64,000 bases of DNA from assembly GCA_021295155.1 (NCBI GenBank), contig JAJTJC010000035.1, positions 1,054,001-1,118,000 of the forward strand, read 5' to 3'. Positions 5,933-24,782 of the stretch are shown piece by piece. A program made the position numbers and the translations under genes. The notes beneath the pieces were generated by a model, which worked only from the letters and a program-made list of their open reading frames with translations, did no database searches and was not told the DNA's origin. Numbering within the stretch: the stretch's first letter is position 1; the number at the start of each line of letters is the position of its first letter. The stretch is from Flavobacteriaceae bacterium D16 (lineage in GTDB: Bacteria > Bacteroidota > Bacteroidia > Flavobacteriales > Flavobacteriaceae).

Positions 5933-6063
5933 TGCGCCAATGGTTGCAATAGCTTTTCAATATACTGAAATATTCAATTAGTATTTATTTTGTTAAAAAG
6001 TAATCCGATGATGTGAATCCTTTTTCAGGTTTATTGATAACCATTTAATAAAATCAACCAAAG

Positions 6064-6078
6064 CTGAGAATTTCTCAG
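6064..6078. promoter_or_regulatory. Perfect 7-1-7 inverted repeat upstream of the phosphodiesterase gene
   Basis: CTGAGAA-T-TTCTCAG is a perfect dyad ending 36 nt before the ATG at 6115. Its size and place fit an operator for a dimeric regulator, but I cannot name one and a single copy could be chance. A weak TATTTTTA box follows it. Confidence 0.3.
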
Positions 6079-6114
6079 GATGTCTATTTTTATATTCCAC
6101 ATAAAAAATCCAGC

Positions 6115-7230
6115 ATGTTACGATCTTTTGTTTTTAGCCTTGCTACCCTGGTTGGCCTTGTTAGCTATTCCCAACCTCACAGCCATCAAAGCATGCATGC
6201 TTTGCACTATCCCAATATTGAAGGATACGTCACTTTAAAAACAGACTTGCATCAGCACAGCGTCTTTTCCGATGGGGAAGTGTGGCCAAGTATTCGGGTA
6301 ATGGAAGCCTTGAGGGAAAACCTGGATGTAATTTCTCTTACCGAACACCTGGAATATCAGCCCCATAAAGAAGATATCCCCCATCCTGATCGTAACCGTT
6401 CATACAAGTTGGCCCTGGAAGAAGCCAAAGAACATGGCCTTTTAGTCATAAACGGCTCGGAAATTACAAGGAGCGAACCCATAGGGCACAGCAATGCTAT
6501 CTTCATTGAAGACGCCAACAAACTCCTTAAAAATGAGGCAGAGACTTCCTTTCAGAAAGCCAAGGAACAAGGCGCATTTGTATTCTGGAACCACCCCGCC
6601 TGGTACGACCAAAGCCCAAGCGGGAATCCTGTTTTGAGTGATTTTCAGAAGAAAAGGATTCAGGAAGGGGAACTACATGGGATAGAAGTAATAAACACCT
6701 TTGATTATGCTGAGGAATCCCTGGCTCTGGCATTGGAGTATAATCTGACCATTATGGGAACCAGTGACATCCATGGATTAATCGACTGGGATTACCTGGA
6801 AGATGGAAACCACAGACCCATTACCCTGATCTTTGCAAAAGATAAAACCCTGCAGAGCACCAAAGAGGCTTTGTTTGAGGGACGGACCGTTGCCGTATAT
6901 AATGACTTACTAGTGGGACGGGAAGCTTACCTTAAACCACTTTTAAAAGCCTGTGTGGAGATTACTAAGGTGAATTATATAGAAGGAACCCAAATCCTGC
7001 AGCTGGACCTTAAAAACAACTCCAGTAGCGATCTGATATTTGAAAATCAAATGCCCTATACCTTTTATTCAAGCAGCCCCGTTTTCACTCTGGAAGTAGG
7101 TAAAACTAAAACCTTAAACGTAAAAACATTAGAACGCCTGGATAATCTTACACTTTCCCTGAAAGCGCTTGGGGCCTACACGGCTCCTAAAACACAAGCG
7201 GTAATCGAATGGGATATTAACGTGGAATAG
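6115..7230 (+). CDS. Secreted PHP-domain phosphodiesterase (Sb-PDE-like)
   Basis: The 371-residue protein has an N-terminal signal peptide (about residues 1-19, ending SYSQ), so it acts in the periplasm or outside. PHP metal-binding motifs are in order: DLHQHSVFSDG near residue 44, LTEHLEY, NGSEIT, FWNHPAW and GTSDIHG. These histidines and acids bind two or three metal ions. Relatives include a Sphingobium-type phosphodiesterase acting on organophosphate diesters and histidinol-phosphatase-like enzymes; the natural substrate is not known. A C-terminal beta-rich domain of about 100 residues follows. It converges on the next gene with a 2-nt gap. Confidence 0.8.
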   Translation: MLRSFVFSLATLVGLVSYSQPHSHQSMHALHYPNIEGYVTLKTDLHQHSVFSDGEVWPSIRVMEALRENLDVISLTEHLEYQPHKEDIPHPDRNRSYKLALEEAKEHGLLVINGSEITRSEPIGHSNAIFIEDANKLLKNEAETSFQKAKEQGAFVFWNHPAWYDQSPSGNPVLSDFQKKRIQEGELHGIEVINTFDYAEESLALALEYNLTIMGTSDIHGLIDWDYLEDGNHRPITLIFAKDKTLQSTKEALFEGRTVAVYNDLLVGREAYLKPLLKACVEITKVNYIEGTQILQLDLKNNSSSDLIFENQMPYTFYSSSPVFTLEVGKTKTLNVKTLERLDNLTLSLKALGAYTAPKTQAVIEWDINVE

Positions 7231-7232
7231 GT

Positions 7233-8438
7233 TTATTCTTTCCCATCCACATATTCCTGCAGGTAGGCATATCCTGAGCTGAGCTTTCCATTATGCGTCA
7301 TCCGGGCCCGGGACAGTATACCATCTGCGTCCCCATTGTAAAATGCCGGGATCACATGTTCCACAAAAGTATCCCCGAAGCCTTCGCTTGCATCCCTGGG
7401 GAGTTCGGCAGGGAGGTTGTCTACCGCCATTACTGCAATAGCATTGGGATCATCGTATGAAACCTCCTTCCCAGTTTCCCGGTCATAACCATAGACAGGG
7501 TCGGCTATGGTTGAGGCTCTGATAGTAGTAGCTACAGGTCCATCTATGTCACAACTGATATCCGCAACAACTTCGATATTAAACTCAGGATCCCGAACGT
7601 CTTCCCGGGTAAAGAGGTAGGGGGCCCCATCCCCGTAAAAATGCCCGGCTATATAGAGATTGGTCACTTTTGCGAAGCGAAAGAAGTTAGACTCATATTC
7701 TTCCGGATGCGCAAAGAAATCAGTAATAGGCAGTTCTTGTCCATCCTTACGTTTGTTGTAATCCAGAACATCGATCTGGCAGAACACCGGGACCTCAAAT
7801 GTATTTTCAAGATATTCGGTTACATTAACTTCCCTGAGGCCCATTCCTACCAGCATTTCTCTCGCCCCGTTGCCTACACGGCCCTTTCCTGTTAGTAGTA
7901 TTTTAATATGTCCAAGAGATAAACCCTGAAGTTCCTTAATCAGGGCCTGACGATCCTTAAGCGATTTGGCCTTAGGCATATCAAACAAGCCGGTCTTCAG
8001 CCCATAGGCCCGGAATCCATTGTATGCTCCTACAATACCTGCATAGCGACCAAAAGCAACCAAACGAACACCCTTTGTATTGGTAATCACTTCGTGGTCG
8101 TACAATTCAATGTTTTTCTCCAGTACAGCTCGCAATAAATCCCGGTTATAAGGTTGTTTTTTGATGGTATGGGAAAAGAAAAAGTATTTTTTATTAGGTA
8201 TCAGTGCTTCGATGGGAACTTCCTTTACGCCGAGCAGTACTTCACAAGCTTCAATATCAGCAGAGACGGTAATTCCTGCCTCTTGGTACTCCTCATTAGA
8301 AAAGACCCTTATGGGAGAGGATTCAACGGTAATCTGAGCCTCAGGGAATTGCGACAAGACTTTTTGGCAGTCCCCCGGAGACAGTACAACTCGATGGTCT
8401 GGAGGACTTTTGCGTTCTCTGATGATTGCGAAATGCAT
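7233..8438 (-). CDS. Saccharopine/alanine-dehydrogenase-like NAD(P)-dependent oxidoreductase
   Basis: The 401-residue protein begins MHFAIIRERKSPPDHRVVLSP, the usual N-terminus of the AlaDH/PNT and Lys1 saccharopine dehydrogenase group, including the conserved basic residues that contact the substrate. The nucleotide-binding loop is GKGRVGNG near residue 180. Segments such as ADISCDIDGPVATT and YDRETG are typical of lysine-forming saccharopine dehydrogenase homologues in Bacteroidota. The start at 8438 is preferred over the longer frame to 8495, because the added 19 residues do not fit the family. Saccharopine or a related opine-like amino acid is the likely substrate, by homology only. Confidence 0.8.
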   Translation of the reverse strand: MHFAIIRERKSPPDHRVVLSPGDCQKVLSQFPEAQITVESSPIRVFSNEEYQEAGITVSADIEACEVLLGVKEVPIEALIPNKKYFFFSHTIKKQPYNRDLLRAVLEKNIELYDHEVITNTKGVRLVAFGRYAGIVGAYNGFRAYGLKTGLFDMPKAKSLKDRQALIKELQGLSLGHIKILLTGKGRVGNGAREMLVGMGLREVNVTEYLENTFEVPVFCQIDVLDYNKRKDGQELPITDFFAHPEEYESNFFRFAKVTNLYIAGHFYGDGAPYLFTREDVRDPEFNIEVVADISCDIDGPVATTIRASTIADPVYGYDRETGKEVSYDDPNAIAVMAVDNLPAELPRDASEGFGDTFVEHVIPAFYNGDADGILSRARMTHNGKLSSGYAYLQEYVDGKE

Positions 8439-8534
8439 AATTGGGATTTGGTATAAAATTTGCTCCAAATTACATGGAATTGTAGGGACAGGCAAATTCC
8501 TCCTTCACTAAAGTTACGGAGGATAGATTTTTGC

Positions 8535-8542
8535 TAACTTCG
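8535..8542 (+). promoter_or_regulatory. Probable -7 box of tmRNA
   Basis: TAACTTCG differs from TAnnTTTG at one base. It lies 37 nt before the mature tmRNA 5' end, which suits a precursor trimmed by RNase P. Confidence 0.35.
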
Positions 8543-8578
8543 CAATCCTTTAAATGAAACAACGTTCTTATACAATAC

Positions 8579-8973
8579 GGGGCCGACTGGTTTTGACAGC
8601 GAGACCAATGGCTATGTAAGCATGCCGAGCGCTGGGATACAGCTCGTAAATCTCATATTTCACACTTTTAAATGGCGAATCTAATTACGCTCTTGCCGCT
8701 TAATCTGAATTATAGTAGGATTTAGCCTCGTCTCTGCAAGGCAGAGAAGCGAGATGTCCCTGGATAGCCCTTGTTGACGGCGATCTTTTTAGGGGCACCA
8801 TAAAAGTCAACACCGCCTGCTTTGCGCTTCGATAAGCGGGTTAACTAAAGAAGCTAAGTGTGTAATGGGCGGTTTTTGGTCAGTTACACATCGAAAATTA
8901 AACAAAGACTAAGCATGTAGAAAGCATGGTAATTGCTTGTTTGGACGAGGGTTCGAATCCCTCCGGCTCCACC
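8579..8973 (+). ncRNA. ssrA: Transfer-messenger RNA (tmRNA)
   Basis: tmRNA rescues stalled ribosomes and adds a degradation tag. The 5' end GGGGCCGACTGGTTTTGACAG and the 3' end GGTTCGAATCCCTCCGGCTCC form the tRNA-like domain: the acceptor stem pairs GGGGCCG (8579-8585) with CGGCTCC (8964-8970), one pair being G-U, and the T-arm carries GGTTCGAATCC. The tag frame at 8674-8703 reads GESNYALAA then TAA; the family's usual Bacteroidota tag resembles GENNYALAA. The 3' CCA is not encoded (ACC then T). Length, about 395 nt, is normal. A hairpin repeat begins 3 nt after the end. Confidence 0.97.
8674..8703 (+). other. tmRNA proteolysis tag reading frame
   Basis: GGC GAA TCT AAT TAC GCT CTT GCC GCT TAA encodes GESNYALAA. 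The ALAA end is the expected ClpXP-type degron. Confidence 0.9.
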
Positions 8974-8976
8974 TAC

Positions 8977-9026
8977 GCCCTCCGAAGCTTGAGCACAGCG
9001 AAAGCGAAGGAGGGCTTTATTATTAT
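8977..9026 (+). terminator. First hairpin copy, likely tmRNA terminator
   Basis: GCCCTCC at 8977-8983 pairs with GGAGGGC at 9009-9015, the stem continues inward with GCTT/AAGC, and TTTATTATTAT follows directly. A GC-rich stem plus a T-rich tract 3 nt after ssrA fits an intrinsic terminator, so the repeat appears to serve the tmRNA gene. Confidence 0.5.
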
Positions 9027-9556
9027 ACACTTCCCCTATCTATAGCAGCAACAGGGCTTCGGTGGATCCCGATCAATTACCCCTTCCTCCAAAGCTTGAG
9101 CAAAGCGAAAGCGCAGCCAAACAATATTTCCCAAATCCATCCTCCGTAGCTTGAGCACAGCGAAAGCGAAGGAAGGCTTTATTATTATACACTTCCCCTA
9201 TCTATAGCAGCAACAGGGCTTCGGTGGATCCCGATCAATTACCCCTTCCTCCAAAGCTTGAGCAAAGCGAAAGCGCAGCCAAACAATATTTCCCAAATCC
9301 ATCCTCCGTAGCTTGAGCACAGCGAAAGCGCAGCCAAACAATATTTCCCAAATCCATCCTCCGTAGCTTGAGCACAGCGAAAGCGAAGGAAGGCTTTATT
9401 ATTATACACTTCCCCTATCTATAGCAGCAACAGGGCTTCGGTGGATCCCGATCACTTACCCCTTTCTCCAAAGCTTGAGCAAAGCGAAAGCGCAGCCAAA
9501 CAATATTTCCCAAATCCATCCTCCGTAGCTTGAGCACAGCGAAAGCGAAGGAGGGC
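8977..9556. repeat. Nested hairpin-repeat array downstream of tmRNA
   Basis: Eight copies of a 33-39-bp core containing AGCTTGAGCACAGCGAAAGC (or GAGCAAAGC) occur at about 8977-9015, 9085-9118, 9141-9177, 9247-9280, 9303-9335, 9358-9394, 9464-9497 and 9520-9556. The core folds on itself: outer arms GCCCTCC and GGAGGGC, inner arms GCTT and AAGC, and symmetric GAA bulges. Cores alternate between two types: one keeps the GAAGGAGG arm, the other ends CGCAGCC and loses outer pairing. They sit in a larger unit of 162 bp (starts of TTTATTATTATACAC at 9016, 9178, 9395), and the second spacing is 217 bp because a 55-bp segment is duplicated. Linker sequences are nearly identical between units. Confidence 0.9.
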
Positions 9557-9612
9557 TAATGCTTGTTTATTACATTATAGGCTTCCATATTTCCTGACTC
9601 AACATTTTATAA

Positions 9613-9858
9613 ATGATTTTACCTTACGCTGTTTACATATTAAAATGTGCCAACGGGCAATACTATACAGGCTTTTCACGAAATATCACTAAAAGGCTCC
9701 GAGCTCATAGACGAGGCCAGGTGTCATTTACCCAAGATAAACTTCCAATAAAACTCATTCATATTACTTTCTTTAATGAAGTTATTAGAGCGTATAACTA
9801 TGAACGCTACCTTAAGTCGGGCTCCGGAATTGCTTTTCGCAATAAGCGCCTGATTTAA
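9613..9858 (+). CDS. Small GIY-YIG nuclease-family protein
   Basis: The 81-residue protein is a bare GIY-YIG domain: AVYILKCANGQYYTGFS carries the (G/A)xY-xIL and YxG elements, RLRAHRRGQ carries the catalytic-helix arginine and following histidine, and YNYERYLKSGSG carries the metal-binding glutamate followed by the usual KSGSG. It resembles the UPF0213/YhbQ-like group, whose members can cut DNA in vitro but have unclear roles. The gene starts 57 nt after the hairpin array and nothing else lies between, so the repeats and the nuclease may form one unit. A homing-like or repeat-maintenance role is inference. Length is complete for this group. Confidence 0.85.
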   Translation: MILPYAVYILKCANGQYYTGFSRNITKRLRAHRRGQVSFTQDKLPIKLIHITFFNEVIRAYNYERYLKSGSGIAFRNKRLI

Positions 9859-9926
9859 CCAACTGATTTAAGTACATTTTGCCGAAAATTCCCTAATTTC
9901 CCCTATCCATCTATGGCTGAAGGAGT

Positions 9927-11486
9927 ATGTTTAAATTACACGATCTAAGCGAAACCCTTTCCAGGATCGGAAAGAATACCATTCCTATGGGAAAGACGCA
10001 GACCACCATAAAAAATTCTTCACTAGAAGCCTATTTTGAAGGGTTCCGCAAGAACATCATTGGGATAAACCAGAGCTTCACCTCCCCTTACGGAGAAAAA
10101 AAGATTATTTACGCAGACTGGATCGCCAGCGGGCGGCTTTACCGACCCATTGAAGATAAATTGTTGTCGGACTTTGGCCCGTTCGTTGCCAACACGCATA
10201 CGGAGACCACCATTACCGGCACAACCATGACACGGGCCTATGCCGAGGCGAGGCACATCATCAAGGAGCACGTGAATGCTAATGACGAAGATGTGCTGAT
10301 CACTACAGGGTCCGGCATGACTGGTGTTGTAAACAAGTTCCAGCGGATCCTTGGTCTGAAAGTGCTGGAGAACCTGAAACCCCATACGGAGATACCAGAT
10401 GAAAAAAGACCGGTAGTATTCCTTACCCATATGGAGCATCACTCCAACCAGACCACATGGCTGGAAACTATTGCCCGTGTAGTGGTGGTACCCCCTGGAG
10501 AAGATGGGCTTATCTGCCTGGATCAATTTGAGAAATGCATACAGGAACACGAAAGCGCCCCAATCAAGTTCGCTGCTGTGACCGCTGCCTCTAACGTGAC
10601 CGGGATCCGTACGCCCTACCACGAAATCGCCCGCCTGATTCATCGTTATAACGGCCTCTGCTTTGTGGATTTTGCCTGTTCGGCCCCCTACGTGAATATT
10701 GATATGCACCCGGAAGATCCCGAAGCCCATCTTGATGCCATCTACTTTTCCCCACATAAATTCCTGGGTGGTCCCGGATCAAGCGGGGTGCTCCTTTTTC
10801 ACAATAATCTCTACCACAACAAGGTACCCGACAACCCCGGCGGGGGTACAGTAAGCTGGACAAACCCCTGGGGTAACCACAAATACATAGACGACATTGA
10901 AACCCGTGAAGATGGCGGCACCCCCGCCTTCCTGCAAACCATACGGGTTGCCCTTGCCATCAGGCTGAAAGAGGAAATGGGCGTGGAAAACATATTGAAA
11001 CGGGAACACCAGCTCATAAGACGTGTTTTTGACCGCCTGGCTGAGCGCAGCGGGATCAATATTCTGGCACCCCGGCACAAGGACCGCCTGGGTTGTTTTT
11101 CATTTTATATTGACGATCTGCATTTCAATCTGGCAGTGAAACTGCTCAACGATCGGTATGGGATTCAGACTCGTGGTGGCTGCTCCTGTGCGGGCACCTA
11201 TGGCCACTACCTGCTGCATGTAGATGAGGAAATGTCCCGCAGTATCACCTGTGAAATCGACGAGGGCGACCTATCGCATAAGCCCGGATGGATCCGAATG
11301 TCTATACATCCTACCAATACGGTAGCAGAAATCGATTTCATCTGTAAGGCCATCCTGGAAATCGCTGAAAACCACAAGGAATGGGCCAAGGATTACCGAT
11401 ATGATCCCAAATCCAACGAATTTATCCACAGGTCCAATGGTAAAAACGAATTAAATCAAATGCGTACTTTCTTCACACTCAGCTGA
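9927..11486 (+). CDS. Class V aminotransferase (cysteine desulfurase-like)
   Basis: The 519-residue pyridoxal-phosphate enzyme shows the fold-type I pattern: TTGSGMTG cofactor phosphate loop, HMEHHSN, VDFACSAPY with the cofactor-binding aspartate, SPHKFLGG with the Schiff-base lysine, and RGGCSCAGTYGH, where a cysteine occupies the place of the desulfurase catalytic residue. It is longer than SufS or IscS by about 100 residues, with an extended C-terminus. It could be a sulfur-transfer enzyme or one of the amino-acid lyase/epimerase relatives; no Suf genes are adjacent. GC-richer codon use than the neighbouring repeats gives clear coding signal. Confidence 0.8.
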   Translation: MFKLHDLSETLSRIGKNTIPMGKTQTTIKNSSLEAYFEGFRKNIIGINQSFTSPYGEKKIIYADWIASGRLYRPIEDKLLSDFGPFVANTHTETTITGTTMTRAYAEARHIIKEHVNANDEDVLITTGSGMTGVVNKFQRILGLKVLENLKPHTEIPDEKRPVVFLTHMEHHSNQTTWLETIARVVVVPPGEDGLICLDQFEKCIQEHESAPIKFAAVTAASNVTGIRTPYHEIARLIHRYNGLCFVDFACSAPYVNIDMHPEDPEAHLDAIYFSPHKFLGGPGSSGVLLFHNNLYHNKVPDNPGGGTVSWTNPWGNHKYIDDIETREDGGTPAFLQTIRVALAIRLKEEMGVENILKREHQLIRRVFDRLAERSGINILAPRHKDRLGCFSFYIDDLHFNLAVKLLNDRYGIQTRGGCSCAGTYGHYLLHVDEEMSRSITCEIDEGDLSHKPGWIRMSIHPTNTVAEIDFICKAILEIAENHKEWAKDYRYDPKSNEFIHRSNGKNELNQMRTFFTLS

Positions 11487-11540
11487 AACCAGGCTTAAGA
11501 GTCTCTGTAAAATTGAATCATCTCCCGGGATATTTATTTA

Positions 11541-11552
11541 TTTTTTTTTTTT
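11541..11552 (+). repeat. Run of 12 T
   Basis: An uninterrupted run of 12 T follows a short CTCCCGGGA palindrome (11522-11530) in the 200-bp space between the aminotransferase and the serine hydrolase. It may terminate transcription, or be a length-variable tract. The hairpin before it is weak. Confidence 0.4.
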
Positions 11553-11686
11553 AGTTTAGTGGTAAACAACCTTGCCGCTAAATCGGTTTACCATCCATGA
11601 TTGGCAAACTATTGGCGTTACTTTCCATTTTGTACTCTTCCCCTTTATCCAAAGGAGGATACTTTATCCTACATCAAAGTTTTACC

Positions 11687-12988
11687 ATGAAAAAACCAGT
11701 ATTTATTTATCTGTTCTTAATTCTTGCGATCCACAACAATATGCAAGGTCAGGACTATATCAGTTCGGAAGAATCCAACCCCGTGAAGATGGGCTGGATG
11801 CAGGGATTTCCTCCGTCTCAGGATAAGATCGTATCAGCCATAGACGGCAGTTTCTTTAGGTTTCCCGCGCTGCGCTACAGCGTATGCCATATGAGAGAAT
11901 TTATGCCCACAACGGAAGTAAAAGCTGCTACAGCCAACCCTTATAAGTTTAAAGTCAGGCTTGATAATGCTATTGACGATGTCAACTTCCTGCCCACCAA
12001 TAGTTCCAAACCCATGAGCTGGCGGGAATCCCTTGGTAAAAACTACACAGATGGTATGCTCATCCTGCACAAAGGAAGAATTGTCTATGAGAAATATTTC
12101 GGGGAACTCAAACCCGACGGACTGCATGCGGCGATGTCTGTCAGCAAAACCTTTACGGGAACCCTAGGGGGCCTGCTGGTAGATGAAGGCATACTGGATG
12201 AGAATAAAACAGGAGCGGATTATGTGTCGGAATTAAAGGGATCAGCTTTTGGCGATGCGACCATAAGGCAGATCCTAGACATGACCACCGCATTAAAATA
12301 CAGTGAGGATTATTCAAATCCGAAAGCAGAGATCTGGGCGTTTTCTGCCGCTGGCAATCCGTTCCCCAAACCACAATCTTATAAGGGACCCACTAATTAC
12401 TACGACTATCTAAAAACTGTTCAAAAAGAAGGCACCCATGGGGAGCTGTTCGGGTACAAAACGGTAAACACCGATGTAATGGGCTGGATCGTTTCCAAAG
12501 TTACCGGCAAATCCATACCGGATCTACTTTCAGAAAGGATCTGGAAACCGCTGGGGACCCATTTTGATGGCTACTTTCAGATAGATGGGGCGGGCATTGC
12601 TTTTGCCGGTGGTGGATTTAGTGCCAACATGAGGGATATGGCCATGTTCGGAGAAATGATCCGAAATAAAGGGAAATTCAATAAAAAACAGATATTACCA
12701 GTGTCCCTGATAGAAGACATTATGAGAGGTGGGAGCCAGGAGGCTTTTAGTAAATCGGTTTATGCCTCACTAAAGGACTGGAGCTACCGGAATATGTGGT
12801 GGCATACGCACAATGAGCATGGCGCTTTTGCAGCCCGGGGTGTGCACGGGCAGACCGTTTATATTGACCCCGCTGCAGAAATGGTTATTGTCAGGTTTGC
12901 TTCCCATCCAGAGGCTAAAAATTCCAAAATTGATCCCACATCACTACCTGCCTATCATGCGGTAGCGAAATATTTGATTTCTAAATAA
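11687..12988 (+). CDS. Secreted serine hydrolase, beta-lactamase/NylB-like family
   Basis: The 433-residue protein starts at ATG 11687 (MKKPVFIYLF), giving a signal peptide; the frame extends upstream to 11597 but that part lacks family features. Serine-hydrolase motifs: S151-V-S-K154 (SxxK), GYKTVNTD in the place of the tyrosine motif, and VHGQTVYIDP near the end, all as in class C beta-lactamase relatives such as 6-aminohexanoate-dimer hydrolase. These enzymes hydrolyse esters or amides; true beta-lactam hydrolysis is not implied. It is first of a same-strand run with a porin and a cupin enzyme, so it may release a substrate outside the cell. Confidence 0.82.
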   Translation: MKKPVFIYLFLILAIHNNMQGQDYISSEESNPVKMGWMQGFPPSQDKIVSAIDGSFFRFPALRYSVCHMREFMPTTEVKAATANPYKFKVRLDNAIDDVNFLPTNSSKPMSWRESLGKNYTDGMLILHKGRIVYEKYFGELKPDGLHAAMSVSKTFTGTLGGLLVDEGILDENKTGADYVSELKGSAFGDATIRQILDMTTALKYSEDYSNPKAEIWAFSAAGNPFPKPQSYKGPTNYYDYLKTVQKEGTHGELFGYKTVNTDVMGWIVSKVTGKSIPDLLSERIWKPLGTHFDGYFQIDGAGIAFAGGGFSANMRDMAMFGEMIRNKGKFNKKQILPVSLIEDIMRGGSQEAFSKSVYASLKDWSYRNMWWHTHNEHGAFAARGVHGQTVYIDPAAEMVIVRFASHPEAKNSKIDPTSLPAYHAVAKYLISK

Positions 12989-23702: not shown

Positions 23703-23744
23703 GTTTTATGGTTTGGTTGGTGTGGTTTGGTGTGGTTGGTTCGG
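23703..23744. repeat. GT-rich low-complexity spacer
   Basis: The 42 nt between the MBOAT start and the SGNH-like gene's stop repeat the motif GGTTTGGTTGGTGTGGTTT several times with small changes. On the coding (minus) strand it reads as an AC-rich, unstructured leader just before the MBOAT start codon. It may be slippage-prone. Confidence 0.5.
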
Positions 23745-24782
23745 TTATAAGGCGCCGTCTTTTAACATCTGCCTGGCAACATCAAGTGTAAACTGTTTGG
23801 CGTCTGGAGTATTCAGGTGAGACCATTCCGGTGGTGTATATTTATTCATAAAGGGGTAATCCTGGAAATGGTAGCCGAAACTACCAGTTTGCCCAACCAG
23901 CTGGTCGAAGTACATATCCCTGGGAAAGGCTTTACCCTCTATGTCGAGAAACAGGTCCGAAGATGGGCATCTCACAAAAATAACCTGGCCGCCCCGCTCT
24001 TCAAATGCCTTGACCAGGCCAACGGTCATAGCTATAGTCCCTTTCCTTCCCTCTTCAATGACCTCTGGTGGTGGGAGTGATTCAGGCGGGACATTTACTG
24101 CCTCCTTCCAGACCTCGGTCACCATTTTAGCATATTCAGGGTCGGTATCGGCCCTCCACATGGTAATATTCCGGTCCCAATCCAGATATTGAAACATAGG
24201 AAAGGGAGCCTCTCCTGGAACTCGTTCAGGCAATTGGATACCCCATTCCAAAAGGGTTCTCGGGTCCAGCTCATTATAAAACGTTTCCGGACTGGAACAC
24301 AGGAAAGCAAAGGTGTTCTGGAAAGGTTTTTTTACCGTATGCGTCCATTGGTCTGCCCAGGTCCTGCTATGGTAATGATCTAAAAGTTTCTGTGCGCGTC
24401 TTAAGAAAAATTGGTCCATAGTTGGTGGACTAAAGTATAGTGGAGGTGTAATTCCCAGGATGATCTTGCCGGAGAAGTCGCTCTTTTCAACAATGTCTTT
24501 TAAAGCCGCTATTGGATTGGTACCTGCAGCAGCCAACATTACCGGACGGCGACCGGTTACGGATTCAAATTCGTCTAACTGGAAATCAAAAAGGACACGT
24601 GAGGACCCTAGCAGGACCACATCGTCTTTTCCTAACTTCTCAATCCTGTGTCGATTTTCTGCATATAAATGTTTATCGTCTTCGGGAGCTATAGGGTATC
24701 CCTCTCCCCTCCAGTGTAATTCCCAGAAAAGAATTGCGATTAAGGTTAATCCCAGCGCAAGAAACAGCGTCTTTTTTTCCAT
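23745..24782 (-). CDS. SGNH-hydrolase-like membrane-anchored protein, partner of MBOAT
   Basis: The 345-residue product has an N-terminal membrane anchor (residues about 5-22) and a periplasmic domain. VVLLGSSRVLFDF resembles the SGNH block I serine motif (GSSRV). A late PEWSHLN segment could supply the histidine, with Glu rather than the usual Asp three residues earlier (E-W-S-H instead of D-x-x-H). DltD and AlgX/AlgJ-like proteins of this kind work with MBOAT transporters in polymer O-acylation; adjacency to the MBOAT gene is the main support. Catalytic competence is uncertain because the acidic residue is replaced. Confidence 0.65.
   Translation of the reverse strand: MEKKTLFLALGLTLIAILFWELHWRGEGYPIAPEDDKHLYAENRHRIEKLGKDDVVLLGSSRVLFDFQLDEFESVTGRRPVMLAAAGTNPIAALKDIVEKSDFSGKIILGITPPLYFSPPTMDQFFLRRAQKLLDHYHSRTWADQWTHTVKKPFQNTFAFLCSSPETFYNELDPRTLLEWGIQLPERVPGEAPFPMFQYLDWDRNITMWRADTDPEYAKMVTEVWKEAVNVPPESLPPPEVIEEGRKGTIAMTVGLVKAFEERGGQVIFVRCPSSDLFLDIEGKAFPRDMYFDQLVGQTGSFGYHFQDYPFMNKYTPPEWSHLNTPDAKQFTLDVARQMLKDGAL

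What the first reader, a model, noticed from the sequence alone, without database searches (positions are those of the whole stretch)
8977..9858. Nested hairpin-repeat array and GIY-YIG nuclease placed directly after tmRNA: possible self-maintaining repeat/nuclease element
Seen: eight copies of a self-complementary core begin 3 nt after ssrA, and the array ends 57 nt before a stand-alone GIY-YIG gene. Known: REP/RAYT systems pair palindromic repeats with a trans-acting nuclease, and small GIY-YIG proteins can cut DNA. Inference: the array and the nuclease may form one unit in which the nuclease recognises or propagates the hairpin, with tmRNA as a safe insertion site. I recall similar small GIY-YIG genes near RNA genes and hairpin repeats in Flavobacteriaceae, but cannot verify that here.
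Basis: partly seen in the sequence, partly recalled or inferred. Interest (0 to 1): 0.72.

Follow-up and report, generated by a model that had tools for sequence, protein, structure and literature searches.

The report
Nuclease element anchored at RNA-gene ends
A tiny nuclease gene and its hairpin leader sit at the 3' end of the tmRNA gene, and the same unit recurs at the 3' ends of tRNA and tmRNA genes in many other bacteria, so it looks like a family of small selfish DNA elements that live at the ends of stable RNA genes.

Summary
Only four copies keep both hairpin arms; the core was found nowhere else in the genome.

The surprise lies outside the window. Of 80 related loci, 52 have an intact tRNA or tmRNA gene on the same strand within 700 nt upstream (about 1 expected), and 22 more have one slightly farther off or an RNA-gene 3' end just before the leader. 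In 45 of 53 loci with an intact RNA gene, hairpin A begins where that gene ends; its stem is compensatorily conserved (10 of 11 pairs). A second hairpin, B, often copies the last bases of its host RNA (48 of 68 leaders; shuffles at most 38). In Salinimicrobium one ssrA carries the unit, flanked by a 15-nt repeat of the ssrA 3' end; a sister species has the matching empty site.

Best reading: a mobile, probably homing-type GIY-YIG element at tRNA/tmRNA 3' ends; the array is a local amplification of its leader. Association, boundary and patchiness are shown; cleavage and mobility are inferred. My paper searches found no description.

The parts
8579..8974 (+). ssrA (tmRNA), tag GESNYALAA; the host RNA gene. 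Its 3' end is the left boundary of the element
   Evidence: ARAGORN, Rfam RF00023 162 bits
8977..9015 (+). hairpin A, copy 1: 7-bp outer stem, GAA/GAA internal loop, inner stem; terminator-like, conserved in relatives
   Evidence: fold z -5.3; compensatory changes in relatives
9054..9074 (+). hairpin-B region, copy 1 (GGGCTTCGGTGGATC...); its GGTGGA is complementary to the ssrA end TCCACC. Further copies start at 9216 and 9433. The 3' arm is decayed here
   Evidence: positions; family pattern
8977..9557 (+). whole leader array: 8 cores (4 two-armed, 4 one-armed), a tandem amplification of the A/B leader
9139..9177 (+). hairpin A, second two-armed copy
9356..9394 (+). hairpin A, third two-armed copy
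9518..9556 (+). hairpin A, fourth two-armed copy, fold z -3.2
9613..9858 (+). stand-alone GIY-YIG nuclease, 81 aa, under purifying selection; Y8, Y18, G20, R28, H32, E64 are invariant among eight clade members (that these are the catalytic positions is recalled)
   Evidence: Pfam, alignment, AF2 model pLDDT 89.5, Foldseek to UPF0213 and Slx1, dN 0.11 with saturated dS against L200

Best explanation
The leader hairpins plus the GIY-YIG gene are one compact element that occupies the exact 3' end of a stable RNA gene, here ssrA. SHOWN: same-strand anchoring, the left boundary, a conserved hairpin A, a hairpin B adapted to the host RNA's last bases in most leaders that have one, patchy occurrence, one occupied and empty site pair, and purifying selection on the nuclease. 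INFERRED: the nuclease cuts element-free RNA-gene 3' ends and host recombination copies the element in (homing). Hairpin A replaces the terminator that the insertion displaces, which would keep the RNA gene working. The altered second copy of the RNA 3' end at some right borders, and the changed 3' flank on the left, would shield the occupied allele. The 8-core array is a local tandem amplification of the leader, by slippage, unequal recombination, or nuclease-provoked repair as described for phage SegB.
For: Own genome: all 6 small GIY-YIG genes (of 9 PF01541 hits) lie beside a tRNA or tmRNA on the same strand. In 40 genomes (own and 39 relatives), 30 of the 83 listed small GIY-YIG hits lie within 600 nt of an RNA gene, all 30 on the same strand; 0 of 10 long GIY-YIG proteins do. 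In 80 loci of this clade, 52 have a same-strand RNA gene within 700 nt upstream (38 tmRNA, 6 Ser, 3 Ala, 3 Val, 1 Pro, 1 Thr) and 1 an opposite-strand one; in 308 kb of the same loci outside that zone there are 6 (expected 1.0). Of the other 28, L229 has tmRNA at 815 nt, 11 carry an ssrA 3'-end string, and 10 a tRNA- or tmRNA-like 3' end read by eye (L271 and L272 weakly); 6 show none, five near a contig end and one with an assembly gap. In 45 of 53 loci with an intact RNA gene hairpin A starts at its end (by eye). On 53 sequences 97.7% of cells pair and 10 of 11 pairs have two-sided changes; no shuffle of 500 reaches these, and 3 of 500 reach the number of pair types. Hairpin B carries the host RNA's own 3' 5-mer in 48 of 68; 5000 shuffles: mean 29.6, maximum 38. 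Hairpin-first search: 9 hits in 199 genomes, 0 for the reversed pattern, all 9 at an RNA 3' end or fragment, 6 followed by GIY-YIG. Salinimicrobium: 2 of 10 ssrA occupied; L351 has a 15-nt repeat of the ssrA end, then a flank that aligns best, of 119 ssrA flanks, to empty L354. Fewest RNA-type changes on the tree 23, shuffled mean 44.
Against: No cleavage, recognition site or mobility was measured. A repeat of the RNA 3' end after the gene is rare: 13 of 13 nt in 3 of 52 loci, and 5 of 52 beat shuffles; the window shows none. In 8 of 53 loci the RNA gene itself is followed by other sequence and the unit sits behind a second RNA 3' end; in one of these (L137, same genome as L203) the nuclease frame is open, so a shield at ssrA is not evident. 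Hairpin A also occurs without a GIY-YIG gene in reach: L313, L314, L318, L099, L379. Clades keep one RNA type better than chance, which also fits vertical descent. Hairpin A may be just a terminator. In the window hairpin B has lost its 3' arm, and no T-rich terminator was called there.
Confidence: 0.6

Rival explanations
1. Host function. The nuclease and its hairpin leader act on the RNA they follow (3' processing, termination or quality control of tmRNA/tRNA) and are kept for that use.
For: Purifying selection; same strand and downstream of the RNA gene in this clade; hairpin B fitted to the RNA end; clades keep one RNA type better than chance.
Against: GIY-YIG follows only 6 of 109 ssrA loci in the family sample and 2 of 10 in Salinimicrobium. 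One clade serves tmRNA and several tRNAs. The nearest solved folds are UPF0213 and the DNA nuclease Slx1.
Confidence: 0.17
2. Passenger or scar of tyrosine-integrase islands. Such islands attach at tRNA/tmRNA 3' ends; the GIY-YIG unit is cargo or flank caught by them, which would also explain extra RNA 3' ends.
For: An integrase ORF follows ssrA in L353. Several GIY-YIG units sit behind an ssrA 3'-end fragment with a shared CCTATTCGGTG motif.
Against: No integrase lies in the stretches read between ssrA and the next gene or native flank in the window, L075/L200 and L351. Hairpin A follows an RNA 3' end with or without an island. Islands explain displaced units, not the hairpin/target match.
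Confidence: 0.12
3. REP/RAYT-like unit: the nuclease propagates the hairpin as a dispersed repeat.
For: Hairpins without a GIY-YIG gene in reach exist at tRNA-Ala (L314, L318) and at an ssrA fragment (L313).
Against: The core is confined to this array in the genome; the nuclease is GIY-YIG; hairpins found elsewhere also stay at RNA 3' ends.
Confidence: 0.06
4. Ordinary terminators plus slippage beside an unrelated small gene; the association is a hotspot effect.
For: Hairpin A is usually followed by T-rich sequence; tandem leader arrays arise in 9 of 64 leaders.
Against: 52 same-strand RNA genes where about 1 is expected; hairpin A at only 1 of 33 tRNA 3' flanks of the own genome, and that tRNA is GIY-linked; hairpin/target match.
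Confidence: 0.05

Closest known systems
Phage T6/T4 SegB and other free-standing GIY-YIG homing endonucleases (PMC13096335: abstract and two sections read)
   Same: Stand-alone GIY-YIG gene enriched beside tRNA genes; SegB provokes tandem amplification of the tRNA segment.
   Different: Phage genomes; the sections read report no fixed side or distance and no hairpin leader. Here the gene is chromosomal, about 80 aa, on the RNA gene's strand, bounded by the RNA 3' end, with hairpins fitted to that end; also at tmRNA.
REP / RAYT (TnpA-REP) systems (search listing and abstract beginnings only; otherwise recalled)
   Same: A palindromic repeat tied to one nuclease gene; hairpins can occur without the gene.
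   Different: Tyrosine transposase rather than GIY-YIG; REPs are dispersed in many copies, this core is at one locus.
Integrative islands at tRNA/tmRNA 3' ends (tyrosine integrases; recalled, with one example in L353)
   Same: Exact use of the RNA-gene 3' end, with a repeat of that end on the far side in L351.
   Different: No integrase in the unit; the element is about 0.5 kb with one nuclease gene.
UPF0213-type stand-alone GIY-YIG proteins
   Same: Same minimal fold.
   Different: Other small GIY-YIG genes of these genomes that look UPF0213/YhbQ-like by eye (recalled, no tree made) have no RNA gene nearby.
GIY-YIG-coding insertions in rRNA genes of Patescibacteria (PMC11270868: passages read)
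   Same: GIY-YIG proteins tied to stable RNA genes in Patescibacteria.
   Different: Those lie inside rRNA genes; 'tRNA' does not occur in that paper's main text.

Membership tests
Free-standing homing endonuclease element | Nuclease domain of a homing family with its catalytic positions kept | tested here: met
   PF01541; invariant positions (catalytic assignment recalled); AF2 fold; purifying selection. Activity not measured.
Free-standing homing endonuclease element | Occupied and element-free alleles of the same site | tested here: met
   Salinimicrobium L351 versus L354, exact junctions; one clear pair only, between species.
Free-standing homing endonuclease element | Site-specific cutting of the element-free allele | not testable with these tools
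   Needs purified protein.
Free-standing homing endonuclease element | Insertion makes the occupied allele resistant | tested here: inconclusive
   Both junctions differ from the empty site in L351, but L137/L203 keep an ssrA with ordinary flank.
Free-standing homing endonuclease element | Spread not explained by vertical descent alone | tested here: inconclusive
   Fewest RNA-type changes 23 against 44 shuffled, on a poorly resolved tree; patchy in genus and family; three Patescibacteria MAG loci could be mis-binned.
REP/RAYT | Dispersed multi-copy palindrome in the genome | tested here: not met
   8 of 8 copies in one array.
REP/RAYT | Tyrosine (HUH) transposase encoded with the repeat | tested here: not met
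   The linked gene is GIY-YIG; the other ORFs of at least 50 aa between ssrA and the aminotransferase are two of 70 and 56 aa lying in the array.
Tyrosine-integrase island at ssrA | Integrase gene inside the element | tested here: not met
   Window. L351: the 0.5 kb between the ssrA end and its repeat holds the GIY-YIG gene.
Group I/II intron with homing endonuclease | Insertion inside the RNA gene with an intron RNA | tested here: not met
   ssrA is full length and Rfam finds only tmRNA in 6000-12000 at gathering score.

The most novel reading that the evidence does not exclude
A distinct class of minimal mobile element, one roughly 80-aa GIY-YIG nuclease plus a two-hairpin leader, that colonises the 3' ends of tRNA and tmRNA genes across Bacteroidota and Patescibacteria. 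It finds or re-adapts to each new host RNA gene by acquiring the last bases of that RNA in hairpin B, so that the RNA's own end serves as address and shield. Hairpins without the gene, such as those after tRNA-Ala in L314 and L318, would be its non-autonomous form.
Probability: 0.4. Interest if true: 0.9.

Novelty: new variant of a known kind. Interest (0 to 1): 0.74.

Why it matters
Stable RNA genes are the classical landing sites of mobile DNA, but the known residents carry integrases or introns (recalled). A 0.5-kb resident with a single small nuclease, an exact RNA 3' boundary and hairpins matched to its host RNA would be a new minimal kind of resident, and it would explain many of the small GIY-YIG genes of these bacteria. 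It gives a testable rule (RNA gene, then hairpin A, then hairpin B copying the RNA end, then GIY-YIG) that can be scanned in any genome, and a ready substrate for cleavage assays.

Tried and rejected
Reading the array as a dispersed REP-like repeat: rejected, the core is at one locus. Looking for other RNA genes beside the small GIY-YIG genes that have none: of 46 such loci Rfam gave only Flavo-1 (L047), Acido-Lenti-1 (L019) and a weak tRNA before L087. A general repeat of the RNA 3' end after the gene: mostly not found (5 of 52). A right-end motif TTTGCAGGAC: only 5 of 49 tmRNA loci, and also in 5 of 95 ssrA loci without GIY-YIG, so I make no general claim of a right border. NCBIfam and PHROGs gave no family at E 0.001. 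Sigma-70 and terminator scan: no terminator called, 5 promoter-like sites where 2.4 are expected. Papers: searches; among the results listed (lists capped at 8-20, abstracts begun) I saw nothing describing this association in bacterial chromosomes, and passages of the GIY-YIG superfamily paper PMC1564403 do not mention it. Subscription papers and most preprints are not held. The phylogeny rests on 81 columns and 54 of 114 inner branches are open.

Rows dropped or chosen: one search covers 83 hits with an open frame under 200 aa from the capped list, and 10 long ones for which loci were held; some hits lie at contig ends and some are fragments or tandem copies. One search covers 109 ssrA loci of 108 genomes: of the 110 genomes, G007 (occupied, seen as L062) and G106 (ssrA at a contig start) were not fetched, and one genome gave two loci; 7 loci have under 600 nt downstream. 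The hairpin-A alignment used 52 of 64 leaders plus the window; left out were eight where the RNA gene is followed by other sequence (L203, L207, L220, L225, L227, L238, L262, L275), three short nested forms (L237, L267, L278), and L259 by mistake, although it has hairpin A. The 80 leaders are 74 of the 80 named loci, the window, the own tRNA-Ser and four others; 12 had no recognisable hairpin B and were not scored, and the ends of 18 loci were set by hand. The window's end was cut wrongly there and it counted as a miss; read correctly it is still a miss. One search took 26 of the 53 rows with loci, the best by score; L287 and L391 are one gene, and L288 and L290 repeat L230 and L257. The hairpin-first pattern was drawn from known loci and includes the last two bases of the RNA end, so it is not blind and misses variants.

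Full report
THE LOCUS. ssrA lies at 8579-8973/8974 on the + strand. Three nt later a leader of eight related 38-nt cores begins, with spacing 107/55. Four cores (8977, 9139, 9356, 9518) keep both arms of a hairpin; four have lost the 3' arm. Three copies of a second motif, GGGCTTCGGTGGATC (9054, 9216, 9433), lie between them. The GIY-YIG gene 9613-9858 follows, then a class-V aminotransferase gene at 9927. The core occurs only here in the genome.

THE GENOME SHOWED THE PATTERN. PF01541 has nine hits in the 3.22-Mb genome. Three belong to long proteins. All six small ones lie beside a tRNA or tmRNA gene on the same strand: two at tRNA-Asn, one at tRNA-His, two tandem copies between tRNA-Ser and tRNA-Pro, and the one in the window. 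At tRNA-Pro two copies of the 319-bp tandem unit contain a tRNA-Pro-like sequence whose T-arm is replaced by another hairpin. In 40 genomes (own and 39 relatives), 30 of 83 listed small GIY-YIG hits lie within 600 nt of an RNA gene, all on its strand, against 0 of 10 long ones. Most of the other small ones look like UPF0213/YhbQ proteins by eye (recalled; no tree made) and have no RNA gene nearby; a few at contig ends resemble the RNA-linked ones.

ONE CLADE, MANY RNA GENES. An alignment of eight tmRNA-linked proteins brought 80 named loci (the best 80 of 321). ARAGORN places an intact same-strand RNA gene within 700 nt upstream in 52 of 80: 38 tmRNA, 6 tRNA-Ser, 3 Ala, 3 Val, 1 Pro, 1 Thr. 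One RNA gene is on the opposite strand in that zone. Outside it, 308 kb of the same loci hold 6 RNA genes, so about 1 would be expected; the loci are not all independent. Of the other 28 loci, one has tmRNA at 815 nt (L229), 11 have an ssrA 3'-end string before the leader and 10 have a tRNA- or tmRNA-like 3' end read by eye, L271 and L272 only weakly (L261 also by Rfam). The last six show none: five lie near a contig end (L214, L218, L243, L249, L252; 42 to 586 nt upstream) and L258 has an assembly gap. A second set of 26 loci, taken from the best rows of family and phylum searches, has an upstream same-strand RNA gene in 21; L286 and L395 of the other five have an RNA 3'-end fragment before the hairpin. 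By their titles the named loci include Flavobacteriaceae, Cyclobacteriaceae, Bacteroidales and three Patescibacteria MAGs (the last grouping recalled).

THE LEADER. In 45 of 53 loci with an intact RNA gene, hairpin A begins where that gene ends (by eye); in the other 8 it stands behind a second RNA 3' end. On 53 sequences, 97.7% of cells pair and 10 of 11 pairs have changes on both sides; shuffles average 84.4% and 4.9 pairs. None of 500 reaches the observed value in four measures; 3 of 500 do so for the number of pair types. The internal loop is mostly GAA/GAA and a T-rich stretch usually follows. Hairpin B carries GGYGGA and then, in most cases, a copy of the host RNA's last bases: TCCAC at tmRNA and tRNA-Ala, TCCGC at tRNA-Ser, CCCAC at tRNA-Val and tRNA-Ile. 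The own 5-mer is present in 48 of 68 leaders; 5000 shuffles gave mean 29.6 and maximum 38. Of 17 leaders scored as ending otherwise than TCCAC (one of them the mis-cut window), 10 carry their own 5-mer and none carries TCCAC. The rows are not phylogenetically independent. The third base of hairpin A and the base before hairpin B are complementary in 31 of the 32 leaders where both were recognised. Leader arrays (period 25 or more) occur in 9 of 64 leaders, so the window's array is an extreme case of a recurrent amplification; the same-genus genome G001 has two hairpins and no array called by TRF.

HAIRPIN-FIRST AND EMPTY-SITE TESTS. The pattern CCTWCGCYCNCCGWAGC, drawn from known loci, has 9 hits in 199 Flavobacteriaceae-level genomes and none when reversed. 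All 9 lie at an RNA 3' end or fragment; 6 have GIY-YIG downstream within 1.5 kb, 3 have none in reach (L313, L314, L318). In 109 ssrA loci from 108 genomes of different genera, GIY-YIG follows in 6, all with hairpin A: four directly at ssrA, and two behind a second ssrA 3' end (L098, whose frame is broken, and L137). Hairpin-like starts without GIY-YIG are L099 and L129, the latter at a contig end. Seven of the 109 have under 600 nt downstream. In Salinimicrobium, 10 of 12 genomes give a full ssrA; 2 carry the unit, 8 show no GIY-YIG within 1.5 kb. In L351 the unit runs from the ssrA end to a second CCCCTCCGACTCCAC, a 15-nt repeat of the ssrA end before which the T-loop is replaced. The flank that follows aligns best, among 119 ssrA flanks, to the flank directly after ssrA in L354 (score 24, next 15, 500 shuffles at most 11). 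In the genus of G107 (3 genomes) L379 has hairpin A behind ssrA 3'-end copies but no GIY-YIG in reach.

THE PROTEIN. It is a minimal GIY-YIG domain: AF2 pLDDT 89.5 from 8 sequences, nearest folds UPF0213 and Slx1, nearest PDB sequence UPF0213 at 2.6e-14. dN is far below dS in five pairs. On a poorly resolved tree of 118 proteins, RNA type needs at least 23 changes against a shuffled mean of 44 and minimum of 40: the clades keep to one RNA type but switch repeatedly, for example tRNA-Ser L230 inside a supported set of otherwise tmRNA-linked or unassigned rows.

MECHANISM. I commit to a homing-type element at RNA-gene 3' ends, confidence 0.6. Anchoring, boundary, hairpin conservation and the single occupied/empty pair are shown. 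Cutting, self-protection and the terminator role are inferred. SegB of T6 is the nearest worked example: a stand-alone GIY-YIG enzyme beside tRNA genes that drives tandem amplification (PMC13096335; abstract and two sections read). REP/RAYT is rejected as membership, because the copies are not dispersed and the nuclease family differs. Nothing that I saw in the paper searches describes this association in bacterial chromosomes.

Counts corrected: 21 (not 22) of 26 loci; 108 genomes (not 109 genera) behind 109 ssrA loci; 40 genomes including the own; the leader does not always start at the intact RNA gene (45 of 53). None of these changes the odds.

Noticed in passing
L003 1100-2450 (own genome C22:714-715 kb): Two tandem 319-bp units of GIY-YIG gene plus tRNA-Pro-like sequence sit before the intact tRNA-Pro; the tRNA-like copies have the T-arm replaced by another hairpin.
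   Followed up: partly
L001 780-1830 (own genome C11:895-896 kb): The tRNA-Asn gene is flanked by two different GIY-YIG genes, with partial tRNA-Asn copies that carry palindromes in the D-loop and T-loop positions (by eye).
   Followed up: partly
L314, L318: Hairpins A and B without a GIY-YIG gene in reach sit at the end of tRNA-Ala next to tRNA-Ile, probably the rRNA-operon spacer; possibly a non-autonomous form.
   Followed up: no
L202, L204, L213, L216, L247, L248 upstream of GIY-YIG; L353: ssrA also looks like a hotspot for tyrosine-integrase islands: presumed far borders share a CCTATTCGGTG motif and end in an ssrA 3'-end copy. The L353 ORF after ssrA is an integrase.
   Followed up: partly
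L199 (G125:C1:772661-775672): A second, weak tmRNA match (49 bits) in a genome that also has a normal ssrA; ARAGORN does not call it.
   Followed up: no
L275 about 2100-2500: Patescibacteria locus where a tRNA gene before the GIY-YIG leader seems to be split by an intron-like insert (by eye).
   Followed up: no
window 23709-23746: A short tandem repeat (period 14-19) elsewhere in the window.
   Followed up: no
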